Below are positions 19,314 through 24,052 of a stretch of 30,397 nucleotides of DNA, in pieces. The DNA is taken from assembly GCA_002494975.1 (NCBI GenBank), contig DADI01000031.1, forward strand, positions 882 through 31,278, in the 5' to 3' direction. The stretch comes from Euryarchaeota archaeon UBA556. Its GTDB lineage: Archaea; Thermoplasmatota; Poseidoniia; Poseidoniales; Thalassarchaeaceae. Position numbers and translations under genes: made by a program. The notes under the pieces were generated by a model. The model saw only the letters and a list, made by a program, of their open reading frames with translations, was not told the DNA's origin and made no database searches. Position 1 is the first letter of the stretch, and the number at the start of each line of letters is the position of its first letter.

Positions 19314-21938
19314 ATGAGACTATGGGATGGAGACTCGGGTGTCTGTATAGTGAATCCTGAAAATCGTATTTTTTCTTGGAAAAGTATACCTCGTTCATCG
19401 AGAATAATTCTAATTACAACTATGGTAATTGTAGTTCTGATTACACCAAATTTGGCTGAAGGATACTACGAAAGCTCTTGGGAACAAATAGAAAAGAATT
19501 CCGAAAATAATTATAATTCAGCAATAATAGATGAAAATGGAGACGCATGGGTATTCGGAGATAATGGAGAAATTGTTTTTGGAGAGAAAATGGAACAATG
19601 GGTGAATTTTGAATCTCCAACTAATGAAAATCTTGTAACTGCACATGCAAATAATGAACGAATTGTAGCTGCGGGCAATAATGGTATTGTGATATACAAA
19701 GAATATAATTCTGAAGAATGGATTGAAATTAGAATGGAGACTCAGATAGATATAAATTCGGTATCTATAAACTCTAATGATGAAATATTTGTAGTATCAA
19801 ATAATGGAGAAATATGGTGCTTTAAAGAAGATAATTGGGTTGAAATTGAAAGTTTAGTATCAGAAAAATTAAACGATATTGTATTTGAAGGAGAAAGAGG
19901 ATTGATTTCAGGATCTTCAGGTTTGATATTAGGTTCTGAGAATAATGGTGAAAATTGGGAAATTAGGGAGACCCCGGATGAGGTTACAGATTCTGAAATT
20001 ATTTCAATAGATTTCTATGGTATAAATAGAGGTTATGCGATTACATCTAATGGTGAAATATTAAAATCAACTCAAGAAGAACTTACTACGACTGTAGGTT
20101 ATAATTGGTACCTCAAAGAAATAGAATCCGAGAACCAAAGTACCAGTCTAGATGTTAATTTGACCTCATTAGAGGTCCTTAGTACTACGAAGATATTACT
20201 TTCAGGTGATAATGGATATATCGCTTTAAGTAAAGACGGAGGAAACATTGTGACCCCCCAACTATTACCAATAGAAGGAGATTTTTCCATAAATGATATT
20301 GCAATGAAGAATGCCTTTGTGGGAATAATTGTAGGAGATAATGGAACCATATTATACACTGAAAATGGAGGTGAAGATAGCGCAGTGGGATTCGAAATTA
20401 TTGACTTGAGTGATTTTAGCGAATTTGTAGATTTCACCAAAGATAATCTCCTAGAAGGGCTAAAGGCCACAGTTAAGATAGTGATTTTTGGGATATTATT
20501 GGGTTTCTTTATCGGAATTGCTCTAGCAATGTGTAAAACAGCACCGACGACACTGAAACAAATGATAGAGGGTGACCTAGAAAGAACCTTGACTTTATTC
20601 TGGGTAATCATCCCATCTACAATATTTTGTATACGAATTTACGGCCTTGGTTTAGGTATATTATCACTATCAGGACTAATTATTCTATTTTCATTATTGA
20701 ATTACTACATCAATAAAAACAAAATAGAGAAGGAGGGTTTCTTGAGTATTTCAATACCTAATGGATATAGAACTAATTTGATTCGTATACTTGGTTTGAC
20801 ATTATTGGTAGGAATGCCATTAATAGGGAAATGGGAGATTAAAGGTGGAATTGAACTTATTTATACCGCTCTATCAGATTTTTATAGCTTTCATTTAGGT
20901 TCTAATACATTCAAATTATCTGCTCAGATAGCATATATTTTCGCACCAATTGGAGACCCTAGCGCATTTATGAGATTAATATTAGGAGTCGGAGTGACAT
21001 ATCTTGGATTATTATTCCTAACTACAAATGGTACATTTTCAAAGAAATATATACCCTATGGGAAACTGGTATTTATTTCATTATTATGGGTAATAATACT
21101 AGCCGAGATTTTTATTGATCCCAATTCATCAGGCGATAAAATTACTTCATGGTTTGATTTGGGATGGAGACTTTTCCTAGTGCTGATAGGCCTATTAGTG
21201 ACGAAAAGAATCTTACCTAAAGAAATTAAATCTGTTCTAAAAAATTCTAACGATTATACACTAACTTTTGAACCTTGGAAAATAAGACCACTACAGGTGA
21301 TTGCGACATTATATACTGATTTTTTCAGGAATACACCACTATTAGTTCAGTTCATGTTCATTCATTTTGGGTTGCAATTAGGTAAACACATACAGAATAT
21401 AGGACTAGATCTAACAAGTGATTTAATTACTATATCGTCACTTTTAGGCCCATTAGATAGTTTATTACATCCAATTATAGATTATATCAGTGGAAGCTTA
21501 TTTGGTCCTGGAAAGAGATCATATCTTAGTGCAATTTTTGCACTGGGACTTAATTCGGCAGCATATCAATGTGAAACAATAAGAGGTGCTATCGCAGCAA
21601 TTCCTTCCGGTCAGATGGAGGCGGGTAGGAGTATTGGGTTGACTTATATGGGCACAATGAGATTGATTATTCTACCACAAGCAATTAGAATTTGTATACC
21701 ACCTCTTGGCAACGAAATGGTTAACTTAGTGCTTAATTCATCTCTAGCAAGTGTGATTGCATATACAGAATTAACAAGACAAGGGAAATTGGTTGTCGCA
21801 ATAACTTTCCAAATCTTTTGGACTTGGGGGATGGTCATGGTTGCATATTTCGTAGTTACTTGGTCGCTCGCGTTGTTATTAAGAAGGTTAGAAGAAAAGA
21901 CAAGAATACCAGGACTAGGAATCTCAGGAGGGAACTAA
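19314..21938 (+). CDS. ABC permease fused to an N-terminal seven-repeat beta-propeller
   Basis: This 874-residue protein is a fusion. A membrane segment (about 31-45) is followed by about 310 extracytoplasmic residues with seven repeats built on xxGDNGxI. These lie near 81, 120, 162, 200, 244, 297 and 340 and resemble YCF48/BNR-type propeller blades. A HisM/GlnP-type permease domain begins at about 379 (LLEGLKATVKIVIFGILLG). It is interrupted after about 410 by some 245 residues with several membrane helices, and resumes at YTDFFRNTPLLVQ (667-679). The ATPase-contacting EAA loop is intact (EAGRSIGL...ILPQAIR, 769-791). It lies 19 bp after the DUF59 gene and directly against the ATPase start codon. 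No substrate-binding protein is near, so the propeller may serve as receptor or sensor; that is inference. Confidence 0.88.
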   Translation: MRLWDGDSGVCIVNPENRIFSWKSIPRSSRIILITTMVIVVLITPNLAEGYYESSWEQIEKNSENNYNSAIIDENGDAWVFGDNGEIVFGEKMEQWVNFESPTNENLVTAHANNERIVAAGNNGIVIYKEYNSEEWIEIRMETQIDINSVSINSNDEIFVVSNNGEIWCFKEDNWVEIESLVSEKLNDIVFEGERGLISGSSGLILGSENNGENWEIRETPDEVTDSEIISIDFYGINRGYAITSNGEILKSTQEELTTTVGYNWYLKEIESENQSTSLDVNLTSLEVLSTTKILLSGDNGYIALSKDGGNIVTPQLLPIEGDFSINDIAMKNAFVGIIVGDNGTILYTENGGEDSAVGFEIIDLSDFSEFVDFTKDNLLEGLKATVKIVIFGILLGFFIGIALAMCKTAPTTLKQMIEGDLERTLTLFWVIIPSTIFCIRIYGLGLGILSLSGLIILFSLLNYYINKNKIEKEGFLSISIPNGYRTNLIRILGLTLLVGMPLIGKWEIKGGIELIYTALSDFYSFHLGSNTFKLSAQIAYIFAPIGDPSAFMRLILGVGVTYLGLLFLTTNGTFSKKYIPYGKLVFISLLWVIILAEIFIDPNSSGDKITSWFDLGWRLFLVLIGLLVTKRILPKEIKSVLKNSNDYTLTFEPWKIRPLQVIATLYTDFFRNTPLLVQFMFIHFGLQLGKHIQNIGLDLTSDLITISSLLGPLDSLLHPIIDYISGSLFGPGKRSYLSAIFALGLNSAAYQCETIRGAIAAIPSGQMEAGRSIGLTYMGTMRLIILPQAIRICIPPLGNEMVNLVLNSSLASVIAYTELTRQGKLVVAITFQIFWTWGMVMVAYFVVTWSLALLLRRLEEKTRIPGLGISGGN

Positions 21939-22682
21939 ATGGAAGAAATCGTACTTGAAATAGAAAATCTGGAGAAAATTTATCCGGGTGGAGTTCATGC
22001 AGTCAGAGGGATCTCTTTTAATGTCAAGAAAGGTGAATCAGTAGCAATAATTGGGTCATCTGGAAGCGGTAAATCTACGGTATTAAGATGTATTAATCGA
22101 CTTATTGAACCAACAAAAGGAACTATCAAATTGAACGACCAGATTGTAAATAATCCATTAGCAGATGTTAATGAGATTCGTTCAAAAATTGGCATGGTTT
22201 TTCAATCGTTCGAGTTATTTTCTCACCTAACGGTTCTCGACAATATCACCTTAGGATTACGTCATGTAAGAGGATTGAAAAGAGAAGAAGCAGAAGAGAA
22301 TGCATTGAAAGTTCTAGAAAGAGTAGATATGTTGGACCGTATTGAAGCGTTTCCAGGGAATCTTTCAGGGGGGCAAAAGCAGCGAGTAGCTATAGCAAGA
22401 GCCTTGGCAATGCACCCTGAAGCAATATTATTTGATGAACCAACCAGTGCATTAGATCCTGAACTAATTGGCTCTGTTTTACAAACAATAAGGAGTTTAG
22501 CAAATGAAGGAATGACAATGGTTATAGTGACTCATGAGATAAATTTCGCGAGAGATGTTGCAGACCGAATTATCTATATGGATAAGGGGATTATTGCAGA
22601 ACAAGGTCCTTCGAAAATCTTAGAAAGCCCTAAATCTGAAAGGTTAAAGCAATTCTTATCTTCAATGGATGAAGAAATATAG
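21939..22682 (+). CDS. Polar amino acid ABC transporter ATPase
   Basis: This 247-residue protein is a complete ABC ATPase of the GlnQ/HisP type. Walker A is GSSGSGKST (39-47), the Q-loop lies in MVFQSFELFSHLTV, the signature is LSGGQKQRVAIARALAM, Walker B is AILFDEPTSALDPE, and the switch histidine lies in VIVTHEINFARD. Its ATG directly follows the permease stop codon with no gap and is preceded by GGAGGGAA, a strong ribosome binding site. It is therefore the motor of the propeller-permease. The same family moves glutamate, glutamine, arginine and related amino acids. Its end lies 5 bp from the end of the convergent glutamate dehydrogenase gene. Confidence 0.97.
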   Translation: MEEIVLEIENLEKIYPGGVHAVRGISFNVKKGESVAIIGSSGSGKSTVLRCINRLIEPTKGTIKLNDQIVNNPLADVNEIRSKIGMVFQSFELFSHLTVLDNITLGLRHVRGLKREEAEENALKVLERVDMLDRIEAFPGNLSGGQKQRVAIARALAMHPEAILFDEPTSALDPELIGSVLQTIRSLANEGMTMVIVTHEINFARDVADRIIYMDKGIIAEQGPSKILESPKSERLKQFLSSMDEEI

Positions 22683-22687
22683 ATTGA

Positions 22688-24052
22688 TTATATTAATCCC
22701 TGAGCAGTCATTGCTTCCGCCACCTTGAGGAAACCCGCAATATTTGCTCCAGCGACATAATTACCAGGCATTCCATATTTCTCAGCAGTCTCAAATGCGT
22801 TCTTGTGGATATCAACCATTATTTGATCTAGTTTAGCATCCACTTCTTCACGAGTCCAATTATATCTCAGAGAATTTTGAGACATTTCAAGACCAGAAGT
22901 TGCAACTCCACCTGCATTACTAGCTTTACCTGGAGCAAACATCACTCCATTATTTAGGAACACTTCGACTGCTTCAGGGGTACAAGGCATATTCGCTCCT
23001 TCTGCTACTGCCATAACTTTGTTAGCAACTAACATTTTTGCTTCCTCACCATTGATTTCATTCTGAGTAGCACAAGGAAGTGCGACATCTACATTAACAT
23101 CCCATAGTCCGTTTGAAGAGGGTTCTGGTGCTGAAGCAGTAAAGATAGCGCTAGAGTATTTTTCAGCGTATTCGGAAATTCTACCTCGGCGATTATTCTT
23201 TAAATCCATTATCCAAGAAAGTTTCTCTCGATTAATCCCTTCTGAATCATAAACAAAACCGCTAGAATCAGACATAGTAACTGGTTTCCCACCAAGATCA
23301 AGTACTTTTTCACAGGCAAATTGAGCTACATTGCCTGAGCCTGAAATAGAAACGGTTGCTCCTTCAAATGATTTACCTTTAGCTCCAAGCATTTCACGTG
23401 CGAAATATACTAGGCCATATCCAGTTGCTTCTGGTCGAATTAAAGAACCTCCATATGAGCGACCTTTTCCAGTAAGTACACCTGTAAATTCATTTGCAAG
23501 TTTCTTATACATTCCAAATAAATATCCAATCTCTCTACCTCCTACACCGATATCACCAGCGGGCACGTCAAGATTAGCTCCAATATGTCTCCAAAGTTCC
23601 ATCATAAAAGATTGGCAAAATCTCATAACTTCTGCATCTGTCTTACCTTTAGGGTCAAAATCTGAACCACCTTTTCCACCACCCATAGGAAGGCCGGTTA
23701 GACTATTCTTGAATACCTGCTCGAAAGCTAGAAACTTTAGTATTGATTGATTAACGGTAGGGTGGAATCTTAAACCACCTTTGTACGGTCCAATTGCACT
23801 GTTCATTTGAATTCTGAAACCTCTGTTAACATGTAATTTACCACTATCATCAAACCAAGGGACACGGAACTGAATGATTCTCTCTGCTTCAACCATTGAT
23901 TCAACGACTGGTAAATATTCAGGGTGTTCCTGAATTACTGGAACTAGGCTCTCCAGTACCTCTTCCACGGCTTGGTGGAATTCAGGTTGGTTCGGATCTC
24001 TTGCAATTACACTTTCATATACTTTTTTCATTGTATTATCCATGGGATTCAC
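22688..24052 (-). CDS. gdhA: NADP-type glutamate dehydrogenase (hexameric, bacterial-like)
   Basis: This 454-residue protein has the length of the hexameric 450-residue class that normally runs in the aminating, NADPH-linked direction in bacteria and fungi. It joins ammonia and 2-oxoglutarate to form glutamate. Motifs: GPYKGGLRFHP with K91, the catalytic LPMGGGKGGSDFDPKGK with K127, GRSYGGSLIRPEATGYG near 197-213, and GSGNVAQFACEKV of the Rossmann domain. Most archaeal GDHs are nearer 420 residues, so transfer from bacteria is likely. The start is ambiguous among Met residues 1, 4 and 8. It converges on the amino acid transporter. Confidence 0.95.
   Translation of the reverse strand: MNPMDNTMKKVYESVIARDPNQPEFHQAVEEVLESLVPVIQEHPEYLPVVESMVEAERIIQFRVPWFDDSGKLHVNRGFRIQMNSAIGPYKGGLRFHPTVNQSILKFLAFEQVFKNSLTGLPMGGGKGGSDFDPKGKTDAEVMRFCQSFMMELWRHIGANLDVPAGDIGVGGREIGYLFGMYKKLANEFTGVLTGKGRSYGGSLIRPEATGYGLVYFAREMLGAKGKSFEGATVSISGSGNVAQFACEKVLDLGGKPVTMSDSSGFVYDSEGINREKLSWIMDLKNNRRGRISEYAEKYSSAIFTASAPEPSSNGLWDVNVDVALPCATQNEINGEEAKMLVANKVMAVAEGANMPCTPEAVEVFLNNGVMFAPGKASNAGGVATSGLEMSQNSLRYNWTREEVDAKLDQIMVDIHKNAFETAEKYGMPGNYVAGANIAGFLKVAEAMTAQGLI

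What the first reader, a model, noticed from the sequence alone, without database searches (positions are those of the whole stretch)
19314..21938. ABC permease with a built-in extracytoplasmic seven-repeat beta-propeller
Seen: one uninterrupted reading frame joins a signal-anchor helix, seven xxGDNGxI-type repeats near residues 81-345 and a HisM-type permease with an intact EAA loop. Known: polar amino acid importers normally use a separate Venus-flytrap substrate-binding protein. None is encoded beside this permease or its ATPase. Inferred: the propeller may bind substrate, gate transport or hold a partner, giving an importer layout I do not know as a described class.
Basis: partly seen in the sequence, partly recalled or inferred. 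Interest (0 to 1): 0.87.

Follow-up and report, generated by a model that had tools for sequence, protein, structure and literature searches.

The report
Propeller-fused archaeal amino acid permease
In uncultured marine archaea the membrane part of an amino acid importer carries a built-in seven-bladed propeller on the outside of the cell; some relatives encode an unusual rearranged binding protein right beside it, so the propeller is more likely a helper or docking part than a replacement for the binding protein.

Summary
Confirmed: 19314-21938 is one 874-codon frame joining a signal-type helix, a Ycf48-type propeller (PF14870; seven blades in the AlphaFold model; best PDB match Ycf48) and a HisM/GlnP-type permease with an intact EAA loop, followed by a GlnQ-like ATPase. 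It is no assembly artefact: 61 of 193 genomes of the order and 5 of 21 of a related order match strongly. No binding protein (SBP) was found in the window.

Not supported: that the layout as such lacks an SBP. All 5 fusions of the related order have a circularly permuted SBP_bac_3 protein head-to-head with them. A diverged homologue, which has lost the key Arg position, sits head-to-head in 13 of the 61, and the window's sister clade has it. The window's closest relative lacks it there but encodes a related permuted SBP module elsewhere, in a lipoprotein with two LivK-type domains.

Best reading: a type I polar amino acid importer whose permease carries a propeller, probably a docking or stabilising platform for tethered SBPs. 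Architecture, conservation and gene linkage are shown; docking, substrate and the role of the lipoprotein module are inferred. New variant of a known kind; ten literature searches found no description.

The parts
19314..21938 (+). Propeller-fused ABC permease, 874 aa
19386..19442 (+). Hydrophobic helix, residues about 25-43 (signal peptide or signal anchor)
   Evidence: hydropathy scan; helix 27-42 in the model; several relatives end the helix in AxAQ-like sites (read), so cleavage is possible
19464..20369 (+). Seven-bladed Ycf48-type propeller, residues 51-352
   Evidence: PF14870; model; Foldseek; profile search of the PDB, Ycf48 4.6e-21
20370..20447 (+). Conserved linker between propeller and TM1, residues 353-378
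   Evidence: mean conservation 0.73 over 353-380, more than the propeller (0.61); G353, G359, F360, F368, F371 invariant in 41 sequences
20448..20549 (+). TM1 of the permease, residues about 379-412
20568..21263 (+). Poorly conserved insert with extra hydrophobic helices between TM1 and TM2, residues about 419-650
   Evidence: conservation 0.40, gaps 0.28; absent from the 610-619 aa fusions L103-L105
21264..21935 (+). Permease core, residues 651-874
   Evidence: PF00528; Art(QN)2-type permease 4yms_D 2.3e-35 with the profile (the name Art(QN)2 is recalled)
21579..21689 (+). EAA-type coupling loop, residues about 756-792
   Evidence: sequence; most of its positions invariant in 41 sequences; the motif name is recalled
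21939..22682 (+). GlnQ-like ATPase, starts directly after the permease stop codon
   Evidence: PF00005 129.6 bits; best NCBIfam GlnQ 287.4 bits, under its equivalog cut-off 379; an ATPase of this cluster follows the fusion in 50 of 51 loci, the exception (L033) ending about 150 nt after it
22688..24052 (-). Glutamate dehydrogenase-type protein, convergent neighbour (context only)
   Evidence: PF00208/PF02812; the neighbour varies in relatives

Best explanation
The locus encodes a type I ABC importer of the polar amino acid class: probably two copies of the fused permease and two of the GlnQ-like ATPase. The N-terminal propeller lies outside the membrane, tied to TM1 by a conserved linker. It does not replace the Venus-flytrap SBP; it is an accessory platform that most likely docks SBP modules, which in these archaea are tethered and circularly permuted, or that stabilises or gates the permease. 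In the window's clade the gene head-to-head with the permease was lost or moved; a related permuted SBP_bac_3 module sits, in the closest relative, in a lipoprotein with two LivK-type domains, and it may serve this permease. Shown: fusion, propeller fold (model), conservation, ATPase, gene linkage of a permuted SBP family in relatives, the module elsewhere in the closest relative's genome. Inferred: homodimer, outward facing, docking, amino acid substrate, loss in the window's clade, use of the multi-domain SBP.
For: Fusion conserved: 61 of 193 genomes of the order at E<=1e-100 by my count of the table (in 60 of the 61 a listed match reaches the propeller part, in G123 the match begins at the linker beside a contig end; 17 more genomes have only weak matches, E 3.9e-4 to 2.3e-21), and 5 of 21 of a related order. 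Linkage: all 13 genomes with the diverged permuted SBP have it head-to-head with the fusion, 98-183 nt between match ends; all 5 fusions of the related order have the permuted SBP head-to-head, 124-157 nt. In the 3 of these 5 that I read, the SBP keeps the T-K-T-x-x-R stretch and the lobe-two Asp (roles of these residues recalled). In the tree the window's clade is sister to L013/L017, which have the SBP (100/100 branch); the SBP label needs 4 changes, also when the two rows without an upstream flank are left out. The lipoprotein module of the window's closest relative (L084) matches the linked SBP of L103/L104 along one collinear permuted stretch at 49-52% identity, and occurs in 53 of 61 fusion genomes against 3 of 132 others. 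The linker to TM1 is better conserved than the propeller. Ycf48 binds a protein partner (PMC10403576, passages).
Against: No complex was modelled, so docking is untested. The window's own genome is not held. 48 of 61 fusion genomes show no linked SBP at E<=1e-30, though some are fragmentary. G002 has one PF00497 match, in an AapJ-like frame, and neither permuted form; G010 likewise has only an AapJ-like hit (not in the draw). The diverged linked SBP has lost the Arg position in 26 of 26 aligned sequences (Ile or Val there) and the Asp in 21 of 26, so it may not bind an amino acid. The co-occurrence of fusion and lipoprotein module is confounded by kinship. The module is as similar (49-51%) to a canonical-order SBP in L052/L053, and in L083 that gene lies near a BPD_transp_1 permease and an ATPase, so its client permease is uncertain.
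Confidence: 0.6

Rival explanations
1. The propeller replaces the SBP: it binds the substrate itself and hands it to the permease (an SBP-independent importer, at least in genomes without a linked SBP).
For: No SBP found in the window; no linked SBP in 48 of 61 fusion genomes; G002 has only an AapJ-like SBP_bac_3 hit.
Against: Permuted SBP genes are linked to the fusion in 5 of 5 fusion genomes of a related order and in 13 of 61 here, and the tree is compatible with loss in the window's clade. All 17 of the 17 fusion genomes searched (17 chosen from 51 loci) have SBP_bac_3 genes. Invariant propeller positions are mostly Gly/Trp/Phe of the repeat motifs and one DGGN stretch (not mapped in 3D, so a pocket is not excluded).
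Confidence: 0.1
2. The propeller is a built-in assembly or stability factor for the permease, as Ycf48/HCF136 is for photosystem II, with no part in the transport cycle.
For: Same fold and Pfam family as Ycf48; the linker to TM1 is conserved; Ycf48 aids assembly of a membrane complex (PMC10403576 passages).
Against: Four Arg of a Ycf48 chain (5ojr) that read Glu in 5ojp align with d, i, l and d of the fusion profile, so that Ycf48 surface does not look kept; other permeases of the class need no such factor (general knowledge).
Confidence: 0.2
3. The fused permease is a second permease for the general AapJ-type SBP found elsewhere in these genomes.
For: AapJ-like frames occur in 9 of the 17 genomes by my reading of its frame lengths and match positions; aapJ is among the most transcribed genes of two Ca. 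Thalassarchaeaceae MAGs (PMC9723583 passages).
Against: In L074 the AapJ-like SBP lies beside two BPD_transp_1 permeases and an ATPase of its own; the SBP linked to the fusion is of another, permuted kind.
Confidence: 0.1

Closest known systems
GlnPQ / Art(QN)2-type polar amino acid importers (type I, PAAT)
   Same: Permease core (PF00528, TIGR01726; 4yms chain D 2.3e-35 with the profile), EAA loop, GlnQ-like ATPase. In GlnPQ the permease also carries N-terminal extracytoplasmic domains (recalled; GlnPQ appears only as a cited reference, and a passage mentions importers with an SBP fused to the transport domain).
   Different: The N-terminal domain here is a propeller, not Venus-flytrap SBP domains; extra helices between TM1 and TM2; the linked SBP of relatives is circularly permuted and ends in a hydrophobic anchor.
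Ycf48 / HCF136 photosystem II assembly factor (PF14870)
   Same: Seven-bladed fold; best PDB structure match; family score over the Pfam cut-off.
   Different: Fused to a permease in archaea not known to have photosystem II (recalled); far under the NCBIfam equivalog cut-off (56.4 against 326); four sampled Arg positions not kept.
AapJQMP general amino acid importer
   Same: Same permease superfamily; an Aap-like set exists in the closest relative's genome (L074; the name Aap rests on my reading and on PMC9723583 passages).
   Different: Separate locus with its own SBP, two permeases and ATPase; by BLAST the fusion shares only an 88-residue stretch at 43% identity with the AapQ-like and an 82-residue stretch at 29% with the AapM-like protein.
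TpMglB-2, a circularly permuted sugar-binding lipoprotein of Treponema
   Same: A tethered SBP with circularly permuted topology (PMC4990184, abstract and passages).
   Different: Another SBP class (Type I/Cluster B sugar binder against SBP_bac_3); no propeller-fused permease in the passages seen.

Membership tests
Type I polar amino acid ABC importer (PAAT) | BPD_transp_1 permease with HEQRo 3TM domain | tested here: met
   PF00528 54.7 bits; TIGR01726 46.5 against cut-off 42.2
Type I polar amino acid ABC importer (PAAT) | EAA coupling loop | tested here: met
   Residues about 756-792, most positions invariant in 41 sequences
Type I polar amino acid ABC importer (PAAT) | Dedicated ATPase beside the permease | tested here: met
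   21939-22682; best match GlnQ but under its equivalog cut-off
Type I polar amino acid ABC importer (PAAT) | Cognate Venus-flytrap SBP | tested here: inconclusive
   None found in the window; linked permuted SBP in 13 of 61 fusion genomes of the order and in 5 of 5 of a related order
Type I polar amino acid ABC importer (PAAT) | Transport of an amino acid | not testable with these tools
   -
Ycf48/HCF136 | Seven-bladed propeller of PF14870 | tested here: met
   48.5 bits; model and Foldseek
Ycf48/HCF136 | Equivalog NF010237 cut-off | tested here: not met
   56.4 against 326 bits
Ycf48/HCF136 | Conserved Arg patch | tested here: not met
   Four Arg sampled face d, i, l, d of the profile; that these four belong to the six-Arg patch of PMC10403576 is my inference from their being Glu in another PDB entry; the other two were not located
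SBP-fused permease (GlnPQ/OpuA type) | Extracytoplasmic domain of the permease is a Venus-flytrap SBP | tested here: not met
   The domain is a propeller
SBP_bac_3 (linked gene in relatives, not in the window) | PF00497 match over its cut-off | tested here: met
   87.5 bits (L103) and 42.0 bits (L013) against 26.4
SBP_bac_3 (linked gene in relatives, not in the window) | Lobes in canonical order | tested here: not met
   BLAST of L103 against the canonical SBPs L107, L108, L052 and L053: its second half matches their first part and its first half their second part; L013 is collinear with L103; after rotation one PF00497 stretch covers 1-131 (L103) or 9-131 (L013) of 132

The most novel reading that the evidence does not exclude
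In the window's clade, which has no linked SBP gene, the outer propeller has taken over reception: it either binds the amino acid itself or receives it from a shared multi-domain lipoprotein (one SBP_bac_3 module plus two LivK-type modules) that serves two unrelated permeases at once, so that one receptor feeds both a polar and a branched-chain importer.
Probability: 0.2. Interest if true: 0.85.

Novelty: new variant of a known kind. Interest (0 to 1): 0.6.

Why it matters
Polar amino acid importers are well-studied ABC machines, and the outer domains fused to their permeases are known to me only as Venus-flytrap SBPs. A conserved propeller in that position, together with circularly permuted anchored SBPs, in uncultured ocean archaea would show another way to arrange substrate capture, and gives a defined gene set for testing how an accessory outer domain affects a type I importer. 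These archaea are described as abundant and thought to metabolise dissolved organic matter such as lipids and peptides (PMC9723583, start of abstract, passages).

Tried and rejected
Assembly join or frameshift between the halves: rejected; the fusion recurs in many separate MAGs and in AG-/AH- isolates that I take to be single-cell genomes (recalled naming), and 47 of 51 loci have an ORF of 600 aa or more, the other four (L009, L026, L034, L046) starting at a contig end. 'One TGA inside' in five genomes: it is the ordinary stop at the C-terminus. AapJ as the obvious SBP: it has its own permeases. Second AlphaFold model (diverged linked SBP, L013): mean pLDDT 66.9, pTM 0.58; Foldseek's first hits are LysR-type effector domains and a glutamine-binding protein, periplasmic-binding-like folds, but with TM-scores mostly of 0.2-0.3, as might be expected for a permuted chain; I count this only as weak support. 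Rotation test: the PF00497 score rose only from 87.5 to 92.0 (L103), 94.4 to 94.5 (L084, still two stretches) and 42.0 to 45.2 (L013) bits, so the case for permutation rests on the order of the matched stretches and the collinear alignments, not on score. The propeller's conserved residues were not mapped on the 3D model: no coordinate file was in the Python box. Tree: of the 51 rows, L007 and L010 lack the upstream flank and were first labelled 'no SBP'; with both left out the count is still 4 changes. Literature: ten searches listed no paper that I could recognise, from titles and abstract starts, as describing the fusion or permuted SBP_bac_3 proteins in these archaea; the library lacks most subscription papers.

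Full report
WHAT IS THERE. The frame 19314-21938 (+) is 874 codons without interruption. Residues 25-43 form a hydrophobic helix. Residues 51-352 match the Ycf48 family PF14870 with 48.5 bits for the whole protein; ten-residue pLDDT means are 80-93 over 61-350 except two blocks at 70 and 77, and the strands form seven blades by my reading. The first PDB match is Ycf48 (5oj3, E 5.1e-12) among 1508 matches at E<=0.001, as propellers resemble each other. With the profile of 41 sequences, Ycf48 chains are found at 4.6e-21 and the permease 4yms_D at 2.3e-35. Residues 379-412 are TM1, about 419-650 a poorly conserved insert with extra hydrophobic helices, and 651-874 the permease core with an EAA loop. 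The ATPase at 21939-22682 starts directly after the stop codon and is GlnQ-like. Of 24 window ORFs scanned against Pfam, out of 35 of 100 aa or more, none is an SBP.

IT IS REAL AND CONSERVED. One scan of genome contigs found 51 loci, the nearest being L005 (isolate AG-313-L18, by recall a single-cell genome; 93% identity in the best segment). 47 of the 51 have an ORF of 600 aa or more; the other four start at a contig end. In the protein collection 71 proteins matched and 63 carry both domains in the precomputed Pfam column (my count). Two of them (P0010, P0039) are already named 'ABC-type amino acid transport system permease subunit/photosystem II stability/assembly factor' by their source, so the two halves have been annotated before. 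In the window's order, 78 of 193 genomes match the fusion profile; 61 do so at E<=1e-100, and 17 only weakly (my count). The 20 genomes without a match that the table shows, of 115, are 1.6-2.2 Mb, larger than most that match; this fits, by recall, the family Poseidoniaceae, so the fusion looks like a trait of Ca. Thalassarchaeaceae, but the tool told no family. In a sample of the phylum, 75 of 389 match at E<=1e-30; three beyond the genomes are fusions (G267, G277, G333), and 33 others hit the permease core alone, 32 in frames of 153-274 codons and one in 435 (my count). In the order of G277, 5 of 21 genomes have the fusion.

RELATIVES HAVE A LINKED SBP. The three distant fusions read in full are 610-619 aa and lack the insert. 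Head-to-head with each lies a 319-331 aa protein with a signal-type helix, a C-terminal hydrophobic segment (found by the scan in L103 and L104; L105 not scanned but similar by eye), and SBP_bac_3 lobes in swapped order, lobe two first (L103 3456-4415, L104 2771-3766, L105 2631-3593). It keeps the T-K-T-x-x-R stretch and the lobe-two Asp that bind amino acids in this class (roles recalled). All 5 fusion genomes of that order have a match to this SBP head-to-head, 124-157 nt between match ends; a sixth, G431, has a partial SBP match and no fusion match at E<=1e-30. In the window's order a diverged homologue (27% identity and E 8e-21 for L013, 22% and E 1e-6 for L035, against L103) occurs in 13 of 193 genomes at E<=1e-30, all 13 head-to-head with the fusion, 98-183 nt between match ends. 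In an alignment of 26 such proteins the Arg position is Ile or Val in all 26 and the Asp is Ser in 21, so it may be a partner rather than a working receptor. Its AlphaFold model is of middling quality (mean pLDDT 66.9) and supports a periplasmic-binding fold only weakly.

THE WINDOW'S OWN CLADE. Of the 51 loci, 33 have a SAICAR synthetase gene (PF01259 tested on one member) directly upstream of the fusion, 5 the SBP, 7 (L001-L006, L014, as the window) a suf gene set, and 6 no upstream flank (my count). On a maximum-likelihood tree of 51 fusions (47 loci, the window, L103-L105) the eight rows with suf genes, the window among them, are sister to L013/L017, which have the SBP (100/100 branch). 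The SBP label needs four changes; 0 of 500 shuffles were as low, although near-copies favour clustering. With L007 and L010, which lack the flank, left out it is still four. Loss or displacement in the window's clade is the plain reading; independent gains are not excluded, since the root is a midpoint.

WHERE ITS SBP MAY BE. The window's genome is not held. The genome of the closest relative, G003, has three PF00497 matches in two genes. One is an AapJ-like protein beside two BPD_transp_1 permeases and an ATPase of its own (L074). The other is a 1073 aa protein (a lipoprotein by its lipobox-like start, my reading) whose first module is a differently permuted SBP_bac_3 and whose rest matches Peripla_BP_6/ANF_receptor in two stretches, that is two LivK-type domains. 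In L085 (G001) the corresponding gene is followed by a 1287 aa BPD_transp_2 permease and two ABC ATPases, one with the branched-chain-type C-terminus. The first module keeps the Arg and Asp in the 15 sequences aligned (T42, T44, R47, D131 invariant). It aligns with the linked SBP of L103/L104 along one collinear stretch, lobe two, linker and start of lobe one, at 49-52% identity. It occurs in 56 of 193 genomes at E<=1e-30: 53 of the 61 with the fusion and 3 of the 132 without (2 of the 17 with only the weak match; my count), and in 11 of the 13 with the linked diverged SBP. This is suggestive but confounded by kinship. Against it: a canonical-order SBP in L052/L053 is as similar (49-51%), and L053's gene lies near a BPD_transp_1 permease and an ATPase (L083); and G002 has the fusion but neither permuted form.

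HOW IT LIKELY WORKS. By class, the permease should dimerise and be driven by two ATPases, with an SBP delivering substrate from outside (general knowledge of type I importers). The N-terminus of this class faces outward (recalled), so the propeller sits outside, and its linker to TM1 is more conserved (0.73) than the propeller (0.61), which argues for a defined placement. A propeller beside a tethered, permuted SBP is most simply a docking surface; no complex was modelled. The Ycf48 comparison is of fold only: of four Arg of Ycf48 that read Glu in another PDB entry, none is matched by Arg in the profile consensus, and the NCBIfam equivalog cut-off is missed by far. Substrate: an amino acid by family; glutamate dehydrogenase as a neighbour is a weak hint, since the neighbour changes in relatives.

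NOVELTY. Ten literature searches listed no paper recognisable as an account of the fusion. Permuted SBPs are known from a sugar-binding class (PMC4990184, abstract and passages). PMC9723583 (passages) reports aapJ and livK as highly transcribed in Ca. Thalassarchaeaceae; I did not establish that its livK is the three-module protein.

Noticed in passing
L084:607-3828 (-), L085:7250-10375 (+): A protein of 1041-1073 aa joins a permuted SBP_bac_3 module with two LivK-type domains (domains tested on L084); in L085 it lies before a BPD_transp_2 permease and two ABC ATPases, so one protein may feed two classes of importer. The module is found in 56 of 193 genomes of the order.
   Followed up: partly
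L103:3456-4415 (+), L104:2771-3766 (+), L105:2631-3593 (+): A family of circularly permuted SBP_bac_3 proteins with a C-terminal anchor: 418 proteins match the profile at E<=1e-3, the 120 listed at 68-100% identity; the few with a taxon name include Candidatus Poseidoniia. Permutation was checked only in the loci.
   Followed up: partly
L052:1-2678 (-), L053:28-3636 (+): SBP_bac_3 in canonical order inside proteins of at least 892 and of 1202 aa with repeated CDNGEEIPASWxNDGExDCxDGSDE-like segments, which resemble LDL-receptor class A repeats (resemblance recalled).
   Followed up: no
P0047: The longest fusion listed (1183 aa) has, inside the TM1-TM2 insert, a DxDGDG-rich stretch like calcium-binding thrombospondin type 3 repeats (recalled); the insert seems a hot spot for added material.
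   Followed up: no
L074:3106-6923 (-): The AapQ- and AapM-like permeases of the closest relative are also enlarged (763 and 509 aa), with PF00528 only near the C-terminus.
   Followed up: no
window:12742-14364 (-): 540 aa protein with an EF-hand (PF00036, 41.1 bits), near glycine cleavage genes.
   Followed up: no
G014: 19 BPD_transp_1 matches against 3-10 in the other 16 genomes; perhaps contamination of that MAG.
   Followed up: no
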